Positions 50,862 to 60,764 of a DNA stretch of 64,000 bases are shown one piece after another; position 1 is the first letter of the stretch, and each line of letters starts with the position of its first letter. A model generated the notes under the pieces. It saw nothing but the letters and a program-made list of their open reading frames with translations, was not told the DNA's origin and did not search any database. The position numbers and the translations under genes were made by a program. This DNA is from Candidatus Poribacteria bacterium (GTDB lineage: Bacteria; Poribacteria; WGA-4E; WGA-3G), in contig JAPPFM010000056.1 of the NCBI GenBank assembly GCA_028821605.1, positions 62,001 through 126,000 on the forward strand, given 5' to 3'.

Positions 50862-53800
50862 CTAAAGTTCTGGAAGCCTATACACGCCCCGTCGCACCTT
50901 TACAATTTCACCGATCTCCACAAGGCGCGTGAGTTCTGTATTGATTGCTTTTGGATGCCCTTGAATCGCCTCCACGAATTCCGGTGTTTTTTTCTCTCCA
51001 TCAGCGAGAAGTGCGAGAATTTGCTGGCGGAAAGGAACACGTGCAATTTTTCCACCCCTCAGCCTTTGCAACACTCGGTTCGCCTGCCCTGGGGAACATC
51101 CGAGAACCCGCTCTACCTCTTTTCTGCTGGATTCAGCCGTCAGATTGTCGCGTTCGGTCTCAAATCGTTGACGTATCGCTATCACCTCAGCGAGTTTGTC
51201 CAACCCACCGGCGACATCGAAATCCTTCCAGTCAAAAAGGAGCGTTTCAGGTCTGTCAGTAATCTCAGGAATTCGGAATCCCGTAATCAACATAACTTTC
51301 TTGTTTGCTGAACGGTTCAGCTGAACCAACTCCATAATCTCTGTGAATATACGGATGGCCACTTTTTCATGAACGCTCTGGACACGCGCGTCTTTGTAAC
51401 GGTAGGACTCAGGTTCCATTTCATAAGAGAGGGGTTCCTCGTCGTTTCCGAAGTAGACCTGAGTGAACTCCAACATGGTGGCAGGTCCTATTTCCGGCAT
51501 ACCAACAATCCAGCTGACCTGCGCTTCTTGAAAAGCGGTTTCCAATCCTTCCAGCCTTCGAAAGTCCGTCAAGAAACAGACGTTCTCATTTTTCGCGATA
51601 TTCCTCAATTGTGCCAGTGAGTAAACATGGGTTATAATCCCATGCTTAATATCTGGATCCTTTTCAATTTCAGCTTGGATCCTCCAAAAAATGTCCTGCC
51701 CCGTTTCAGACATCCCGATAACGTCCCAAGTACTGCTGAAGTCTAAAATTGTCTCTCGTGGATAGATACCGGTCCGAATCTGAAAAACACGATTTCCAGG
51801 AACCCATGCCATCGGTTGGGTGTGAAGGATCTCGGTGTCCGCGTCCAGGAACGCCCGATGTAAATGTTCACCGTAGAGAATCGGTGCATTGACCAAAAGG
51901 TGTTTGACGCTGGGATGGAGGACCGGCGGCACCCAGAATTGTAGTGCCTCGTCCTCCCATCGCATCGGTGCACCAACGTTCCGCGTGTAATGTGTAAAGA
52001 AACGCTTGAGTTGATGCCAAAACGTCCAGCTTGGATCCGCACAAACCGCTGGAAACTCCTGAATGTTTTCAACAGTCGCGGCGTCCAAGATACCCAACCC
52101 GACAGCGTCCGCTATTGACATCAGGATTTTCATGTCTTCGTTCGGCATAAACGTACGGAGTTGAAAAAAGGGCAACCCTTCCGCTGCCAGTCTATCCGCA
52201 GCCGCAGCATCCACAGGAATATAAGCAGAGATTCCTCGCGCAAACTCGATGGTAAAGCGTGCTAATTCCGCACCGGTCTCCGCATCAATAGCACCGCGTG
52301 CGACCACTCTCCCCTGTATATTGATGTGGCACATCTGTTGGACAATTTCTTCTTCCAGCCATTCAAACGTCTGGACCACTGTTCGGAGGCGTTTGGTAAA
52401 ACTACCGTGGGATCTGTCTCTGATTTCTACCACATTCAGTAGAGCCATCGCAAAGTTGCCTAAGGCACTGCCTTGCCAGTTGATAACCCACTCCTCCAAT
52501 GTGGTTCTCGGGAGTTTGCATCTAAGAAATAGGGCATTCTCTCTCTTGACATTGATGATACAGAGGGGGTGTGTTCCCTCGCGTGCTTCGAGAAGTTGTT
52601 CCATTCCTTTGGCATACTGTGGGTCCAAAAACAGTCGAAAATTCCCTAATATTTGTGCGTTAGTCGTTTGAAATGTAGAAAATTGCGATAGATAACCACG
52701 CTCGCGGCATGCTGTATAGACGGGGCATTGTGGACAGATAATTTCGCTCGGATCCCCACCCTTTTGCTCAATCGCTTCGCACCGTTGAGGATCCTCGCAG
52801 ACATTTCCACGCTGAAAGGGGGTTGCCATGCGCACGTCAACCGGGATATTTTTCACCTGATCCCAGAGATACATCCGATCCCGCCACTGTGCCATCGATC
52901 CGACCTTTGGGTCTTGAAGAAATCGCTCAGTTGCTGCCCCAAGTTCAACACTTGGCACTCTTAAACAGATTGCCTTATGCAGAAAGGGTTCCACTTCACG
53001 GTTTTTCTCTACGTCTGTCTCGGGAATACATCCCAAGACGCGCACGTTTCTATCAAAAGCACGTTGCACCTGAACACTCATTGCTTCTGGCGTTTCATCA
53101 ATCTTTTCCGTAGGTTTCGACTTGTGTAACACCGGCCGTGGACGTTTGAGTGATAGTGGACTGAGGTTTCCTTCCCGAACGGCAAGCACCTTATCGTCTA
53201 TCGGGAGCCCCGTCTCGGGAATCGGCGGTAAGATACCCGTATCCTTCCAAACATCTGTTATGAGTGTTGCCTCCATAGGTAACTCTGTATCAGATGTAGA
53301 TGCACACACCCATACACCCTCTTCATTCTCCCACAAGGTTACCTCTGTGTTGCCACTCTCATCACCGCGTCGGTGCCAATAGTGAAATCCATCCGCTTGT
53401 CTGCTATAAGAAAATCCATGCTTGAAAAGCGCCTCTTTGGCGAGGTCAAGTTTACGCGATCCCAGAGAGTATGGCACCTCGGGAATGCTCTCCGTGTGCT
53501 GTAAAATTTGAAAAACCGGTTCGTGAAGTTTCGCACGAAGCGCATCGAGAGGGGCAAAGAGTACCTCTTTAGGAATCACAGGCGGATCTAACAGATTTCC
53601 AAGCAGGATTTCATAACGCCCATCCCAGCAATTGTGTCCTTTCTTGCCCAAAATTTCAAGATACGCATCGTGGTGGTACGGATTCTCTTGTGATGGGTTC
53701 CCTTTATAGACATACACCCGTGCCTGCTTGGTGTTCGGGTGCAGGTACCCCGGTATCCTGCAAGAAAAGCGCAACCCACCAGATTTTGACAATGTCAACA

Positions 53801-54248
53801 ACGGGTTCGCAGCAGTGTTAACAAGTGCTTGAACGCAAGCAAGAACGGCATCAGGCGCAGCACAGATGGCTTCATACTTAAAGTCGATGTCGTGCCAGGG
53901 CGCGCCATCGCGCGCCGAGGGAATACCTGTATATATTTGAATTCCCCACGACTTATGCCATTGGGTGATATCCCAGTCTGTCGCCTGTTGGCGTTTCAAG
54001 AACCGTTCATCCCTAAAAGACCGCGGGGGACGGTCGGTTCCAGGGGCACGCCCTATCGGCATAAAGGAAATGTCCGCCGCTTCCAAGTCTTGCAACATCA
54101 CAGGGTAGTTGTGCGCACAATAGACTGTTAAATAGTAAGGAAGCCCTTTATAAAGCATAGGTGTTACGGTCGTCTTCCTTTGCTCAAGGGGCTTTTCGTG
54201 CCGTTCGTGGCAGCGGGCAATTATATCTTGCAAGACATCGAGTGTCAT
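50862..54248 (-). CDS. Large primase/helicase-like protein with Cys cluster and C-terminal winged helices
   Basis: 1,128 residues from the ATG at 54248 (GGAGC upstream). Around residue 120 APWHDIDFKYEAI gives a D-x-D pair, and 34 residues on SKSGGLRFSCR recalls motif II of archaeo-eukaryotic primases, with Arg for His. Residues about 480-515 hold a Cys cluster (CEDPQRC ... CPQCPVYTAC) like the Fe-S clusters of some helicases and primases. About 870-1015 looks like a helicase C-terminal lobe (FLTDFRRLEGL ... GFRIPEITDRPETLLFDWKDFDVAGGL). Two winged-helix units end the protein. I see no Walker A or DExH motif, so it may be a non-ATPase derivative. Such genes usually belong to mobile elements. 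Confidence 0.5.
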   Translation of the reverse strand: MTLDVLQDIIARCHERHEKPLEQRKTTVTPMLYKGLPYYLTVYCAHNYPVMLQDLEAADISFMPIGRAPGTDRPPRSFRDERFLKRQQATDWDITQWHKSWGIQIYTGIPSARDGAPWHDIDFKYEAICAAPDAVLACVQALVNTAANPLLTLSKSGGLRFSCRIPGYLHPNTKQARVYVYKGNPSQENPYHHDAYLEILGKKGHNCWDGRYEILLGNLLDPPVIPKEVLFAPLDALRAKLHEPVFQILQHTESIPEVPYSLGSRKLDLAKEALFKHGFSYSRQADGFHYWHRRGDESGNTEVTLWENEEGVWVCASTSDTELPMEATLITDVWKDTGILPPIPETGLPIDDKVLAVREGNLSPLSLKRPRPVLHKSKPTEKIDETPEAMSVQVQRAFDRNVRVLGCIPETDVEKNREVEPFLHKAICLRVPSVELGAATERFLQDPKVGSMAQWRDRMYLWDQVKNIPVDVRMATPFQRGNVCEDPQRCEAIEQKGGDPSEIICPQCPVYTACRERGYLSQFSTFQTTNAQILGNFRLFLDPQYAKGMEQLLEAREGTHPLCIINVKRENALFLRCKLPRTTLEEWVINWQGSALGNFAMALLNVVEIRDRSHGSFTKRLRTVVQTFEWLEEEIVQQMCHINIQGRVVARGAIDAETGAELARFTIEFARGISAYIPVDAAAADRLAAEGLPFFQLRTFMPNEDMKILMSIADAVGLGILDAATVENIQEFPAVCADPSWTFWHQLKRFFTHYTRNVGAPMRWEDEALQFWVPPVLHPSVKHLLVNAPILYGEHLHRAFLDADTEILHTQPMAWVPGNRVFQIRTGIYPRETILDFSSTWDVIGMSETGQDIFWRIQAEIEKDPDIKHGIITHVYSLAQLRNIAKNENVCFLTDFRRLEGLETAFQEAQVSWIVGMPEIGPATMLEFTQVYFGNDEEPLSYEMEPESYRYKDARVQSVHEKVAIRIFTEIMELVQLNRSANKKVMLITGFRIPEITDRPETLLFDWKDFDVAGGLDKLAEVIAIRQRFETERDNLTAESSRKEVERVLGCSPGQANRVLQRLRGGKIARVPFRQQILALLADGEKKTPEFVEAIQGHPKAINTELTRLVEIGEIVKVRRGVYRLPEL

Positions 54249-54365
54249 GGATAGCTCCATATTTTCACATAAGTTAATGACATATTTTATTAGAAATCTC
54301 ATCCTAGGTCAAGTTTTAAATTGATAAGCAAGTTTAATGAGACTTACGCAGAAAACGAATATTCG

Positions 54366-55115: not shown

Positions 55116-55139
55116 TTAATTATCAAACTCACGTTTAGT

Positions 55140-55340
55140 ATAGTTACATTAAATCTTTATTATTTTTTAAATTGAATAATTATAAAAATTGTTTTATTGT
55201 AACTATATAAGGACGGAGCATAAACCGTCACAACCGCAAAGCGGATTCTCCATAGCGGCAAGCAAGCATCTTTTGTAGCAGCATCTGTTAGATGATCCTC
55301 CTAAGCACACGAACTCACAATGGGTGCTATGGAAATCCCG
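55140..55340 (+). repeat. 200-bp direct repeat, copy 1 (candidate structured RNA)
   Basis: It begins with TAGTTACATTAAA, mirrored by TTGTAACTA about 60 bases on, and continues into a segment with hairpins GACGG/CCGTC (55212-55229), CCGC/GCGG (55234-55244) and a closing helix CCATAGC/GCTATGG (55250-55256 with 55326-55332). Copy 2 lies 302 bases downstream. Function unknown. Confidence 0.6.
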
Positions 55341-55410
55341 TAAAAATCGGATAGAATTCTAAAATATTATCCACTTTTCAAGGAAAAGGAACAATTTTTG
55401 TGGACCTAAT

Positions 55411-55439
55411 TTGCTTTTCCCTGAAAAATAGTGTATAAT
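55411..55439 (+). promoter_or_regulatory. Sigma-70 promoter reading into repeat copy 2 and the LRR gene
   Basis: TTGCTT at 55411-55416, 17-base spacer, TATAAT at 55434-55439. Transcription would start about 55446, at the beginning of repeat copy 2, which would then form the 5' leader of the secreted-protein genes. Confidence 0.65.
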
Positions 55440-55441
55440 TT

Positions 55442-55642
55442 TTAGTTACATTAAATCTTTATTATTTTTCAATTTAAAAATAATAAAAAATTGTTTTATT
55501 GTAACTATATGAAGACGGAGTATAAGCCGTTACAACCGCAAAGCGGATTCTCCATAGGGGCAAGCGCGCGTCTTTTATAGCAGAATCTGTTGGATGATCC
55601 CTCTAAGCACGTCAACTCACAATGGACGCTATGGAAATCGCG
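55442..55642 (+). repeat. 200-bp direct repeat, copy 2 (candidate structured RNA leader)
   Basis: Most bases match copy 1. The hairpins are kept, with a pairing-compatible change: GACGG pairs with CCGTT (G-U) at 55514-55531, and ATCT/GGAT replaces ATCT/AGAT. The closing helix TCCATAG/CTATGGA is retained. It lies 150 bases before the LRR gene start and just downstream of a consensus promoter. Confidence 0.6.
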
Positions 55643-55791
55643 TGAATAATGAACCCCCTCAACTATATAGCACTTCAACTACACCGGTTATGCGCAGTGC
55701 GGCGTGCTGCGGGCATTTTTTGTTCCAAATAACTAACCTGATAAAGTTATAGTCAAGGCGGTGCGTCCACCCGTCAAGAAAGGATTGTTTT

Positions 55792-57750
55792 ATGAAAGTT
55801 TTTGTATACTTTGGAATTATGATAGTGATGTTAGGGATTTGGGTTGAGGTTGGCACTGCACAAACCATAACTGAGACGGATATGCCGGATCCGGGCTTAC
55901 GGAACGCAGTGCTGCAAGAACTCAAAGGCTTTGGGGTGATAGGGTCAGGTGATACGACCTTTACACGAGAGAATATGGCGGACACAAGATTCACCCGTTT
56001 GCATGCGACGGGAAGCGGAAGGTATACATCGGACCTCACCGGGGTGAAATATGCAACCAGCCTAACAGGTTTGACTGTCTCTAATAGTGATCTATCTTCA
56101 ACTGATAGCGTTAGTGATATCTCTGAGCTGATGCATCTAACGAGCCTAACAACGTTGAATCTCAACGGTAATAGCATTAGTGATATCTCAGTGCTGTCAG
56201 GTCTGACCTCCCTAACGGCGTTGTATCTCGTCAGGAATATGATTAGCGATATCTCAGTGCTGTCAGGTCTGACCTCCCTGGAAGTGTTGTCTCTCAACGA
56301 GAATATGATTAGCAATATCTCAGTGCTGTCAGGTCTGACCTCCCTGGAACGGTTGTATCTTGACAAGAATATGATTAGCACTATCTCAGTGCTGTCAGGT
56401 CTGACCTCCCTAACGGAGTTGTCTCTCAACGAGAATATGATTAGCACTATCTCAGCGTTGTCAGGTCTGACCTCCCTGGAACGGTTGTATCTTGACAAGA
56501 ATAGGATTAGTAATACCGATGCGCTAGTGGGGCTGACTACCTTAAAACGTTTGTGGCTTTATAGTAATCGAATTACGGCTATTGCTGAGTTCCAAAAACT
56601 GCAACCCTTAACCAATAACCTGCTCGTTGATTTGTATCTCAACCCGGGCGATGCATTCGATGATAATCGTTTAGCTGTCCGAAACAACATTGTGGCTACG
56701 TTGCAAGGCTTCCTCTGGACGCGACCGGGCGATATCCCTGCCGATGAAGCGGTGCGCTCCAGAGGCTACTCGGGAGATCCGCCCACCACGGTTTTTCGCT
56801 TTCCCATCACATTCGCTGAACGCGTCACCGGTTTTCACAGGGACGATATCACTGTAGAGACAGAACTTGAGACCGGCACCGGTGCCGCCGCTTTGGAGGC
56901 GTTGAGTCCTACCCTTTCTGCAGGGCAATACGCACAGAGTTATACCGCAACCATTGGACTGCCCGCCAATGCCATCGGAACCGTGATAATCACCTTGCAC
57001 GCAAGGGCGGCAGAGACCGATGGAGGGGCGATAACTCCCGCTGAAGATATAGTCTATGACCCGATTGCGTTTACAACGATTCCACCCCCACCCCCAGCCC
57101 CAGTGACAGAACCACCGAAGCGGAAGATTATATTTCAATGTCCTGTCGGCTGGCAGAGAACCGACGGGTTTGCGCGACCCAACCGACGAGTCCTCCTCTA
57201 TGAAGTTAACTTGGAAATGGATTTAGAGAATCCTCGCTCTATCTATAAACCTGTCTCGGTCGCTATCTATGTCCACCCAGACGAAGGACTTGAGAGCTTG
57301 GACGGATGGAAACTCCAAGTCGCCATTCCCTATAATCACCATAGAGAGTATCTACTCACAGCAGAGAACGCCGTTGTTGTTGACGCAACACTTGAAGGCG
57401 TATCAGGGGGTTTTGCGTATATAGAAAACCCAGAAGAAAATCCGTTCCCGATGGTAGGGATGGGATTTACGGGAGCGACTGTCCCCGGCTTTGATTATCG
57501 TCTCTATGATGAGACGGGTCGCAAGGTAGACTTTGGGATCTCCTGCTACAAGCGCGGTGATATTTTCCAGGTTCTCAAGGATATGGAAGACCCCAGGGTT
57601 TTAAGAAAAGTGCTGCTTGAGACGTTGGACTGGGATGTGCTCTACATAAGAAGCGAGTGGACGGTTCCGGTTCCCGTCAATGTGCCGGGAGCACCCTCCT
57701 TACAAGGAGTCAATTTAGTTGGCAAGTGGGCGGCTCTGAAAAAACAATAA
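55792..57750 (+). CDS. Secreted leucine-rich-repeat protein with shared C-terminal domain
   Basis: 652 residues. Signal peptide MKVFVYFGIMIVMLGIWVEVGTAQ. Residues about 80-290 are 22-residue LRRs of the internalin/SDS22 type (TSLTALYLVRNMISDISVLSGL and six more). A beta-rich linker with a Pro run (PPPPPAPVTEPPK) leads to the ~205-residue C-terminal domain from about 448 (CPVGWQRTDGFARPNRRVLLYEVNLEMD ... SCYKRGD ... LVGKWAALKKQ), which two downstream proteins share. Two conserved Cys (CPVGW and SCYKR) may form a disulfide. The ATG follows GAAAGGA. The domain is not one I recognise. Confidence 0.85.
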   Translation: MKVFVYFGIMIVMLGIWVEVGTAQTITETDMPDPGLRNAVLQELKGFGVIGSGDTTFTRENMADTRFTRLHATGSGRYTSDLTGVKYATSLTGLTVSNSDLSSTDSVSDISELMHLTSLTTLNLNGNSISDISVLSGLTSLTALYLVRNMISDISVLSGLTSLEVLSLNENMISNISVLSGLTSLERLYLDKNMISTISVLSGLTSLTELSLNENMISTISALSGLTSLERLYLDKNRISNTDALVGLTTLKRLWLYSNRITAIAEFQKLQPLTNNLLVDLYLNPGDAFDDNRLAVRNNIVATLQGFLWTRPGDIPADEAVRSRGYSGDPPTTVFRFPITFAERVTGFHRDDITVETELETGTGAAALEALSPTLSAGQYAQSYTATIGLPANAIGTVIITLHARAAETDGGAITPAEDIVYDPIAFTTIPPPPPAPVTEPPKRKIIFQCPVGWQRTDGFARPNRRVLLYEVNLEMDLENPRSIYKPVSVAIYVHPDEGLESLDGWKLQVAIPYNHHREYLLTAENAVVVDATLEGVSGGFAYIENPEENPFPMVGMGFTGATVPGFDYRLYDETGRKVDFGISCYKRGDIFQVLKDMEDPRVLRKVLLETLDWDVLYIRSEWTVPVPVNVPGAPSLQGVNLVGKWAALKKQ

Positions 57751-57758
57751 CTTGAACA

Positions 57759-59114
57759 ATGAAATTATTTATATCTTTACTCATACTCATGAGTCTCTTG
57801 ATAACTGAAGCCGTCGCTCAAGGTGTCCCTGGAAAACCTACAGGGGTTACAGCAACACCCGGTGATCGCACAGTTACGCTGAACTGGGAGCTTCCAAGCA
57901 ATATAGCCCGTGACGATATTAACGGGTTTGGGATTGAGATGACTGGTCCCGATGGCGTTACACAAAGTTTCACTTTTGCGGAGCTTAATCCTCCTGATAG
58001 AACTACGTCTGCCCTAATCACAGCACTTCCAAATGGAGGTATATATACGTTTAGAGTTAGAAGTCGAAGTTCTAACGGGTTCGGAGAATGGTCCGCATCC
58101 GTAGAAGGAATGCCCATGATACCTGCCCCTGATACGTTCACAGCAACCGCTGGAGATGGTGAAGTTACGCTGAGCTGGACCCCTCCATCATCTGTATTCA
58201 CACCTATCACCAGTTACGAATACAGTCAAAGTCAAAATGGTGGAAATTGGGAAACTGCAGGTGATGGCAATAGCAGGAGCAAGTCTATTAGATCGGCAAA
58301 TGGCATTCCAGGTACTTTCAGGGTCAGGGCTGCACGTGGTTCTGACAAAGGAACAGCTTCTCAGCCAGTAACAGTAACACCTTTGAGAGACGCACCAAGG
58401 ACTCCAGTGAGAGACGCACCAAGAACTCCAGGAGCTCTTAACGTCCAAAGAGTGGCGGATACCGCACCGAAACCGAAGGGGCGGATTAGAATACAGGAAT
58501 GTCCTGTCGGCTGGGTAAGATCCGACGGGTTTGCGCGACCCAACCGGCGAGTCCTCCTCTATGAAGTCAACTTGGAAATGGATTTAGAGAATCCTCGCTC
58601 TATCTATAAACCCGTCTCGGTCGCTATCTATGTCCATCCCGACGAGGCACTTGAGAACCTACACGGATGGAAACTCCACGTCGCCATTCCTTATAATCAC
58701 CATAGAGCGTATCTACTCACAGCGGAGAACGCCGTTGTTGTTGACGCAAAAATTGAAAGGGTAGAAGGTGGCTTTGCGTTCATAGAAAGCCCAGAAGAAA
58801 ATCCTTTCCCCATGGTCGGAGTGGGATTTGCGGGATCATCTGTTCCAGGCTTTGATTACCGTCTGTATGATGAAAGGGGGAAAAGAGTAGACTTTGGGAT
58901 CTCCTGCTATAAGCGATCTGACGTTTTCCAAGCACTTAGGGATATGGAAAATCCGCGAGTCTTACGGAAGGTGCTGCTTGAAACGCTGGATTGGGATGCG
59001 CACTACATAAGAACGGAGTGGACAGTTCCCGTTCCCGTCAATGGGTTTCCGGGAGCACCCGCCTTACACGGAGTCAATTTAGTTGGCAAGTGGGCGGCTC
59101 TGAAAAAACAATAA
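57759..59114 (+). CDS. Secreted fibronectin type III protein with the same C-terminal domain
   Basis: 451 residues, starting 8 bases after the preceding stop. Signal peptide MKLFISLLILMSLLITEAVA. Two fibronectin III domains: about 22-118 (PGKPTGVTATPGDRTVTLNWELPS ... TFRVRSRSSNGFGEWS) and about 122-208 (DTFTATAGDGEVTLSWTPPS ... FRVRAARGSDKGTAS). A short duplicated linker, RDAPRTPVRDAPRTPG, precedes the C-terminal domain from about 246 (CPVGWVRSDGFARPNRRVLLYEVNLEMD ... LVGKWAALKKQ). At DNA level that domain is nearly identical to the previous gene's, far more than the N-terminal halves. Confidence 0.85.
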   Translation: MKLFISLLILMSLLITEAVAQGVPGKPTGVTATPGDRTVTLNWELPSNIARDDINGFGIEMTGPDGVTQSFTFAELNPPDRTTSALITALPNGGIYTFRVRSRSSNGFGEWSASVEGMPMIPAPDTFTATAGDGEVTLSWTPPSSVFTPITSYEYSQSQNGGNWETAGDGNSRSKSIRSANGIPGTFRVRAARGSDKGTASQPVTVTPLRDAPRTPVRDAPRTPGALNVQRVADTAPKPKGRIRIQECPVGWVRSDGFARPNRRVLLYEVNLEMDLENPRSIYKPVSVAIYVHPDEALENLHGWKLHVAIPYNHHRAYLLTAENAVVVDAKIERVEGGFAFIESPEENPFPMVGVGFAGSSVPGFDYRLYDERGKRVDFGISCYKRSDVFQALRDMENPRVLRKVLLETLDWDAHYIRTEWTVPVPVNGFPGAPALHGVNLVGKWAALKKQ

Positions 59115-59150
59115 CTTGAACAGCGAAAAAAAGGAGAACAGAATGTTTAG

Positions 59151-59390
59151 TCTTGTAGGTTGGGTTGAACGGGAACCTACTAAAAATCGCGCACAGCACA
59201 GAGTTTTCAAGGGAACAGAGAAACATGAAATCCCGAAAAACCGAGTGAAACCCAAGGCCCTATGATACGGACCCCGTTTCGGACGTTGGGTTTCGCTACA
59301 CCTCTATCTACCGGAACGGTTCATTGAAGAATGGAGTGCCGTGTATAGCGAAAATGTGTTTGTGGTTTTACCGCTCAACCCAACCTACAT
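59151..59390. mobile_element. MITE-like element, copy 2
   Basis: Ends GTAGGTTGGGTTGAACGG (59155-59172) and CGCTCAACCCAACCTACA (59372-59389), with inner GTGAAACCCAA and TTGGGTTTCGC. The layout is the same as the element at 54544. It lies in the 345-base gap (59115-59459), directly after the spacer AACAGCGAAAAAAAGGAGAA and an ATGTTTAG that matches the start of the gene at 60793. Confidence 0.65.
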
Positions 59391-59459
59391 CCTATGTGGG
59401 TTCAGGTCCCATCGGTTGAAACGAAAGTATAATAAACTATCAAAAGGAGAAAAAAGTTA

Positions 59460-60764
59460 ATGTTTAATAGAAAAAATCTATTCGGGCAGGAGCGGACATG
59501 TTCCCATGCTGGCTCCCGTCTGAGAATAACTATCTTAGTGGCAATTTTAGCAGTTTCTTGTTTACACATGCAAGTTCCCGTATTTGCGAATGGAGGTATT
59601 TCCGAGAACTCCCCTATTTTCACAGAGGGTGCTACGACTACACGCTCTATTGAAGAAAATACACCAGCCGGCAGAAACATCGGTGATCCTGTTAGGGCTA
59701 CAGATGCGGATGGAGATGCGCTTCTCTATGAAATATGCGAAGATTGGGATTGGAAATCTTTTAGTATAGACAGCGCATCGGGACAGATACGAACGAAAGC
59801 AGCTCTTGACTTTGAAACCAAAAACACCTATGAGCTTTTCATTTTTGTCAGTGATTCGGCGAGTGGACCCAGTCGGAATGCTGAGATAATAGTCACGATT
59901 AATGTTATAGATGTAGATGAAACACTTATTCCTGTTAGTGGTGAAGGTGAAAGGTCTACTAACAACGCCCTTACCAATCCTATTACTGATGTAACTGGGA
60001 GAGTTAGGCAGCAACCGCAGAGCATCTCTCCCGCTGTGGAAGAATCGCTTTTAGATGTAGAAAACTCGGATGGAACGCCTCCTGAAGCCACACCGCCGTT
60101 TGTGGGACCCAATCCAGTGCCAAAGCGCGGGATTATACAGGAATGTCCTGTTGGCTGGCAGCGATCCGACAGGTTTGCGGGAAGAACCCGGCGTGTGCTT
60201 CTCTATGAAGTTAACTTGGAAATGGATTTACAGAACCGTGTCTCTATCTATAAACCCATCGCGGTGGCCGTCTATGTCCATCCAGACGAAGCACTTGAGA
60301 ACCTCGAAGGCTGGAAATTACAAGTCGCACTCCCCTATAATCACCATAGAGACTATCTACTCACAGCAGAGAACGCCGTTGTTGTTGACGCAAAAATTGA
60401 AGGCGTAGAAGGTGGCTTCGCGTTCATAGCAAACCCAGAAGAGACACCTTTCCCGATGACAGCGATAGAATTTATGGGCTCGCCTGTGCCAGTGCCAGGC
60501 TTTGATTATCGTCTGTATGATGAGACGGGGAGGCGGGTAGACTTTGGGATCTCCTGCTATAAGCGTCGTGATATTTTCCAAGCACTTAAGGAGATGGAGG
60601 ATCCGAAAGTTTTACGGAAGGTGGAGCTTGAGAGTTTCGACTGGGATTCGCCCTACATTAGAAGTGAGTGGACAGTTCCCGTTCCCGTCAATGGGTTTCC
60701 GGGAGCACCCTCCTTACGGCGAGGTAGCTTAGTTGGCAAGTGGGCGGCTCTGAAGAAACAATAA
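59460..60764 (+). CDS. Secreted cadherin-domain protein with the same C-terminal domain
   Basis: 434 residues. A long N-terminal signal region (about residues 18-42, RLRITILVAILAVSCLHMQVPVFA). One cadherin repeat occupies about 48-158: FTEGATTTRSIEENTPAGRNIGDPVRATDADGDALLYEI ... SASGQIRTKAALDFETKNTYELFIFVSD ... VTINVIDVDE, with the calcium motifs DADGD, LDFE and DVDE. A linker of about 70 residues follows, then the shared domain from about 227 (CPVGWQRSDRFAGRTRRVLLYEVNLEMD ... LVGKWAALKKQ). AAAAGGAG precedes the ATG at 59460. Confidence 0.85.
   Translation: MFNRKNLFGQERTCSHAGSRLRITILVAILAVSCLHMQVPVFANGGISENSPIFTEGATTTRSIEENTPAGRNIGDPVRATDADGDALLYEICEDWDWKSFSIDSASGQIRTKAALDFETKNTYELFIFVSDSASGPSRNAEIIVTINVIDVDETLIPVSGEGERSTNNALTNPITDVTGRVRQQPQSISPAVEESLLDVENSDGTPPEATPPFVGPNPVPKRGIIQECPVGWQRSDRFAGRTRRVLLYEVNLEMDLQNRVSIYKPIAVAVYVHPDEALENLEGWKLQVALPYNHHRDYLLTAENAVVVDAKIEGVEGGFAFIANPEETPFPMTAIEFMGSPVPVPGFDYRLYDETGRRVDFGISCYKRRDIFQALKEMEDPKVLRKVELESFDWDSPYIRSEWTVPVPVNGFPGAPSLRRGSLVGKWAALKKQ

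What the first reader, a model, noticed from the sequence alone, without database searches (positions are those of the whole stretch)
55140..55642. Two direct copies of a ~200-bp unit that folds into the same RNA hairpins, in front of the surface-protein genes
Copies at 55140-55340 and 55442-55642 keep an AT-rich inverted pair (TAGTTACA ... TGTAACTA) and then three helices: GACGG/CCGTC, CCGC/GCGG and CCATAG/CTATGG. Two differences between the copies preserve pairing (C to U opposite G; A to G opposite U), which suggests selection on RNA structure. A consensus promoter at 55411-55439 would begin transcription right at copy 2, so it can be the leader of the LRR/FN3/cadherin genes. It does not match a riboswitch that I recognise. 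A tandem regulatory RNA or a repeat element with RNA structure are both possible.
Basis: partly seen in the sequence, partly recalled or inferred. Interest (0 to 1): 0.62.

Follow-up and report, generated by a model that had tools for sequence, protein, structure and literature searches.

The report
Promoter repeat carrying a tiny transposon
The two "RNA-like" copies are a tandem repeat of a dispersed promoter with a small dead transposon stuck to its end, not a riboswitch; the promoter itself is the more interesting part, because it recurs in front of surface-protein genes across the genus.

Summary
The repeat is real: 55141-55344 and 55443-55646 are about 85-87% identical with a 302-bp period. 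It is best explained as two DNA elements joined together.

(1) The AT-rich "inverted pair" is part of a roughly 112-bp promoter module: P1 TTGCTT-N17-TATAAT at 55411-55439, and P2 TTGAAT-N17-TATTGT inside the inverted repeat. It occurs about 21 times in this genome and in 30 of 38 genomes of the genus. It almost always points at a gene that starts downstream, enriched for signal-peptide or membrane proteins (24/30 against 31% background).

(2) The three-helix part is a 152-bp MITE-like element (55510-55661). It belongs to a genus-wide family with terminal inverted repeats TGAGGGTGGTTCATAA. Copy 2 has a 6-bp target-site duplication (ACTATA). A 1.1-kb IS (IS982-like DDE transposase) with nearly the same ends occurs in two relatives. 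Copy 1 lacks the MITE's 3' end, as expected of a later tandem duplication.

Covariation does not support a selected RNA structure: no compensatory pair in the named helices across five copies, one helix broken in two. The MITE lies where the LRR gene's leader would be, so its hairpins are probably transcribed; regulation by them is unproven. A new member of a known kind.

The parts
55139..55207 (+). AT-rich inverted-repeat core of the promoter module, copy 1; holds P2 (TTGAAT 55172-55177, N17, TATTGT 55195-55200)
   Evidence: spacer of 17 gives the best -35 score over 78 modules
55208..55344 (+). MITE-like element, copy 1, 3'-truncated (no 3' terminal repeat); 5' end TAAGGACGGAGCATAA
55345..55410 (+). 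upstream flank of the promoter module (AAAATCGGATAGAATTC...), also found upstream of the module at other loci; the tandem-duplication junction is at about 55340-55350
55411..55439 (+). promoter P1: TTGCTT-N17-TATAAT
   Evidence: recurs in genus-wide modules
55441..55509 (+). AT-rich inverted-repeat core of the promoter module, copy 2; holds P2 (TTAAAA 55474-55479, N17, TATTGT 55497-55502)
55504..55509 (+). left target-site duplication ACTATA
55510..55661 (+).
55576..55595 (+). internal palindrome core TRTAGCAGAATCTGTTRGAT (copy 1: 55274-55293); 25 matches in the genome against 0 for the control pattern
55662..55667 (+). right target-site duplication ACTATA
55693..55711 (+). intrinsic-terminator-like hairpin followed by TTTTTT, between the repeats and the gene
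55792..57750 (+). first downstream gene: secreted leucine-rich-repeat protein, 652 aa

Best explanation
The unit is a composite of two mobile or dispersed DNA elements, duplicated in tandem. A genus-wide promoter module (P1 plus an AT-rich inverted-repeat core containing P2) sits upstream of a surface-protein gene. A small non-autonomous transposon (MITE), derived from an IS of about 1.1 kb, inserted at the 3' edge of the module, at the start point expected for P2, and duplicated ACTATA. A later unequal exchange duplicated module plus MITE with a 302-bp period; the first MITE lost its 3' end. The cassette was also copied to two other loci in front of secreted-protein genes. Transcription from P1/P2 would place the MITE in the 5' leader, so the hairpins would be transcribed as passengers. 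Shown: repeat, terminal repeats, target-site duplications, IS relatives, module distribution and orientation, lack of covariation in the named helices. Inferred: promoter activity, the transposition event, the order of events, transcription of the hairpins, lack of a regulatory role.
For: MITE: full-length relatives in G034, G023, G021, G015 and others end in TGAGGGTGGTTCATAA...CACCCTCA. Exact 6-7 bp flanking duplications at 9 of 15 checked short elements outside this genome (TTTATA, ATTAAC, TATAAG, GTTAAA, GTAAAC, ATAATT and others), and ACTATA at window copy 2. Elements of 1110 and 1113 bp with nearly the same ends carry a DDE transposase gene (IS982 model E=2e-13). A remnant of that transposase, 78% identical, lies next to the C20 cassette. 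The copy-1 3' end is replaced by the module's upstream flank, as a tandem duplication predicts. Module: about 21 places in the genome; present in 30 of 38 genus genomes at E<=1e-5. Same-strand gene downstream in 39 of 40 relatives, against 98 of 174 for control gaps, p=5e-8. Hydrophobic N-terminus in 24 of 30 non-redundant genes against 88 of 285 background genes, p=2e-7. Orthologous genes keep it: aquaporin in five genomes, a lipoprotein in three. Best -35 score at a spacer of 17 for both P1 and P2. Against an RNA function.
Against: The window copies have diverged terminal repeats (10-12 of 16 matches to the consensus at the 5' end; one base missing at the 3' end) and internal deletions. Of the three cassette loci only the window has a target-site duplication; C16 copy b has none and C36 shows none by eye. 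No transcript data. The IS982 model match is far below its curated cut-off (50.5 against 130). On the module arms one covariation measure exceeds all 500 shuffles, mostly from the outermost pair, which relatedness alone can give. No precise empty site was found: the LRR orthologues in G023 and G008 have diverged upstream regions.
Confidence: 0.87

Rival explanations
1. A structured cis-regulatory leader (riboswitch- or attenuator-like) present in tandem, controlling the LRR/FN3/cadherin operon, with the terminator-like hairpin at 55693-55711 as the expression platform.
For: Lies in the expected 5' leader; a terminator-like hairpin with a T run follows, and similar hairpins recur in the leaders of a few other secreted genes; CCATAGC and TTTTRTAGC could compete for GCTATGGAAA (read from the sequence; copy 2 folds the second way).
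Against: No full-length relative in the leaders of orthologous genes; relatives are MITEs at unrelated sites, one in front of dnaK. No compensatory changes in the named helices; folding no better than shuffles; no Rfam family reaches its gathering score there.
Confidence: 0.06
2. Two tandem genes for a standalone small RNA, each with its own promoter, ended by the terminator at 55693-55711.
For: Each copy has a P2 promoter directly before it; a terminator-like hairpin follows copy 2.
Against: No terminator after copy 1; the body is a MITE; elsewhere the same module leads directly into genes.
Confidence: 0.04
3. The AT-rich inverted pair is an operator for a DNA-binding regulator besides holding promoter P2; the cassette spreads membership of a regulon. 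(Compatible with the best explanation; concerns the role of the arms only.)
For: The two arms are conserved on their own (AGTTA..TATAG.C / TTGaCTTATTATAACT) over 78 modules; the left arm sits at the start expected for P1.
Against: The right arm is accounted for by the P2 -10 element; no regulator identified.
Confidence: 0.35

Closest known systems
[quoted passage not shown]
   Same: Small MITE of 100-200 bp with terminal inverted repeats, often directly upstream of genes, carrying or completing promoters and folding in the transcript (PMC10969869, PMC2649163).
   Different: Different ends and duplication length (6 bp here); here the promoter belongs to a separate module next to the MITE and not to the MITE itself; host phylum different.
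IS982-family insertion sequences
   Same: About 1.1 kb, one DDE transposase, terminal inverted repeats; the transposase of the parent IS matches the IS982 model (E=2e-13).
   Different: Score far below the curated cut-off; ends TGAGGG..., target duplications mostly 6 bp; membership unproven.
REP / BIME / REPIN palindromic repeats
   Same: The MITE contains dispersed palindromes (TGTAGCANAATCTGTTAGAT, CCGCAAACTAACAGTTTGCGG) that also occur alone.
   Different: No RAYT transposase was looked for; here the palindromes sit inside an element with its own terminal repeats.
Putative mobile promoters (from general knowledge)
   Same: A promoter-bearing repeat dispersed at non-orthologous sites in front of genes.
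   Different: The module is also kept at orthologous genes over the genus, as a functional promoter would be.

Membership tests
MITE | Terminal inverted repeats | tested here: met
   Family consensus TGAGGGTGGTTCATAA at both ends; diverged in the window copy
MITE | Target-site duplication | tested here: met
   ACTATA at 55504-55509 and 55662-55667; 6-7 bp at 9 of 15 other short elements; absent at C16 copy b
MITE | Short, no transposase, many copies | tested here: met
   133-202 bp apart from one interrupted copy; matches in all 38 genomes of the genus, most of them to the internal palindromes
MITE | Autonomous IS with the same ends | tested here: met
   1110- and 1113-bp elements in G029 and G027, ends TGAGGGTGTTTCATAA, one mismatch to the MITE end
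MITE | Can be moved by a transposase | not testable with these tools
   Only a transposase remnant in this genome
IS982 family (parent IS) | Transposase above the family cut-off | tested here: not met
   50.5 bits against 130
Riboswitch / structured leader RNA | Match to a known family | tested here: not met
   No Rfam family at its gathering score there; nothing credible below it
Riboswitch / structured leader RNA | Covarying helices | tested here: not met
   0 two-sided changes in 15 pairs over 5 copies, one helix broken in 2 of 5; few copies, so limited power
Sigma-70-type promoter | -35/-10 hexamers with a 17-nt spacer | tested here: met
   Best mean -35 score at spacer 17 for P1 and P2; the simple scanner did not list P1 because its -35 has only 3 of 6 matches
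Sigma-70-type promoter | Transcription start mapped | not testable with these tools
   No RNA data

The most novel reading that the evidence does not exclude
The promoter module marks a genus-wide regulon of secreted and membrane proteins (WD40, LRR, VWA, metalloprotease, aquaporin), read by a dedicated regulator that binds its inverted repeat and spread by copying the module to new genes; the MITE insertion then tunes one branch of it.
Probability: 0.3. Interest if true: 0.65.

Novelty: new member of a known kind. Interest (0 to 1): 0.4.

Why it matters
It turns an apparent unknown RNA into a readable series of events: module, MITE insertion, tandem duplication, dispersal. It also gives a sequence handle (model R1) on how uncultured, probably poribacterial, genomes may coordinate the eukaryote-like surface proteins that have been postulated to mediate contact with sponge hosts (PMC3909097).

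Tried and rejected
Rfam search: nothing credible. The covariance model of the unit (R2) found only this genome's copies plus one true MITE homologue and one palindrome-only match. A genome-contig scan with the cadherin protein gave only distant hits and no near relative. RNA hairpin reading of the AT-rich arms rejected. Shared C-domain rule rejected. A search for the empty site gave LRR orthologues with diverged upstream regions. One structure string had the wrong length and was redone. No paper on a MITE or such a promoter in Poribacteria was found in the held library.

Full report
Observation. The two copies are real and far beyond chance (E=1.8e-64). The window is part of a 6.0-Mb genome in 60 contigs. 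The same tandem pair lies on contig C16. A single copy spans the ends of C20 and C36, whose ends share about 55 identical bases, so they probably form one locus. All three loci point toward a secreted-protein gene 150-350 bp on: LRR in the window, CARDB on C16, LRR/LDL-receptor-repeat with a FlgD/Por-tail C-domain on C36.

RNA structure. Both copies fold about as well as shuffled sequence. With five copies the RNAalifold consensus gets almost no covariation (-0.28 kcal/mol). Five near-identical copies have little power, so this is absence of support rather than disproof.

The AT-rich half is a promoter module. BLAST and a sequence-only profile (R1) found it alone, without the hairpin part, about 21 times in this genome and up to 25 times per genome in the genus; it is rare in a sister genus and was not found in the other families searched. 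The conserved features are TTGCTT-N17-TATAAT (P1) and TTGAAW-N17-TATTRT (P2, inside the inverted repeat); the -35 score peaks at a spacer of 17 for both. A gene starts downstream on the same strand in 39 of 40 cases taken from relatives (control gaps 98 of 174, p=5e-8), and 24 of 30 non-redundant genes have a hydrophobic N-terminus against 31% of background genes (p=2e-7; simple home-made gene calling and hydrophobicity rule). Five of 39 are WD40 proteins and five aquaporins; no family reached more than 2 of 50 in the background. Orthologous genes in different species keep the module. Over 78 modules the arms pair no more than expected from independent columns (60.0% against 59.2%), so they act, if at all, as DNA.

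The hairpin half is a MITE. The covariance model of the unit (R2) hit a diverged full-length homologue in G034 in front of dnaK, with no promoter module. Its relatives share terminal inverted repeats TGAGGGTGGTTCATAA...ATTATGAACCACCCTCA and exact 6-7 bp flanking duplications at 9 of 15 checked short elements. Window copy 2 fits: ACTATA | TGAAGACGG...CCCCCTCA | ACTATA, 152 bp, 55510-55661. Relative to the 200-bp form it lacks two internal stretches. The same ends, with one base changed, bound 1.1-kb elements with a DDE transposase gene; this genome keeps only a transposase remnant, directly upstream of the C20 cassette. Inside the MITE are dispersed palindromes that also occur alone (25 places against 0 for the control pattern); these give part of the hairpins.

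Order of events (inferred). Module in front of the LRR gene; MITE insertion at its 3' edge with ACTATA duplicated; tandem duplication, whose junction joins the MITE (CCGT) to the module's upstream flank (AAAATCGGATAG), which explains why copy 1 lacks the 3' terminal repeat; copying of the cassette to C16 and C20/C36, where no target-site duplication flanks it. The window is therefore probably the original insertion site.

Mechanism. P2's expected start is at or next to the first base of the MITE, P1's start is about 65 bases earlier. The leader of the LRR gene would then hold the MITE hairpins and, after them, a terminator-like hairpin at 55693-55711. Whether this lowers, raises or leaves expression unchanged cannot be told from sequence. 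CREEs show that such insertions can matter through promoters, IHF sites and RNase III processing (PMC10969869, PMC2649163).

Host. No taxon name is given for the genome. LRR_4, cadherin, fn3 and tandem LDL-receptor class B repeats and a Por-type tail, with WD40 proteins elsewhere, are the set reported for Poribacteria (PMC3909097); this is an inference.

Noticed in passing
55693-55711; also L038, L061, L140, L257-L260: A terminator-like hairpin ending GCGGGC(A/T)(T/G)TTTTT recurs between promoter and start codon of several secreted-protein genes (4 of 57 module leaders of 450 nt, about 0.3 expected); a possible leader attenuator.
   Followed up: partly
L061, L064, L037 downstream of the module: A second leader family (GTGTGTCAATTGCCTCGTGATGGATCGCGATGACCTGT...) follows the module at two loci of this genome and one of G006; a third (TTCTTAATGAGGGCAAATGCCT...) follows it at L073, L074, L076.
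   Followed up: no
L071 (G000:C41:95567-95668): One promoter module lies directly in front of a Cas6-like gene (by eye), others in front of response-regulator, cold-shock and OGG1-like genes: not all targets are surface proteins.
   Followed up: no
55792-60764: Three successive genes (LRR, FN3, cadherin) share a C-terminal domain of about 210-250 aa (69-82% identical) ending KWAALKKQ, behind unrelated N-terminal parts.
   Followed up: partly
G027 (L251-L253): A compact 142-144-bp MITE with the same ends is in many copies in G027, and many contigs of that assembly end at the terminal repeat.
   Followed up: partly
50862-54302 (-): 1146-aa protein on the opposite strand with only an AbiEi_4 fragment match at its C-terminus.
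   Followed up: no
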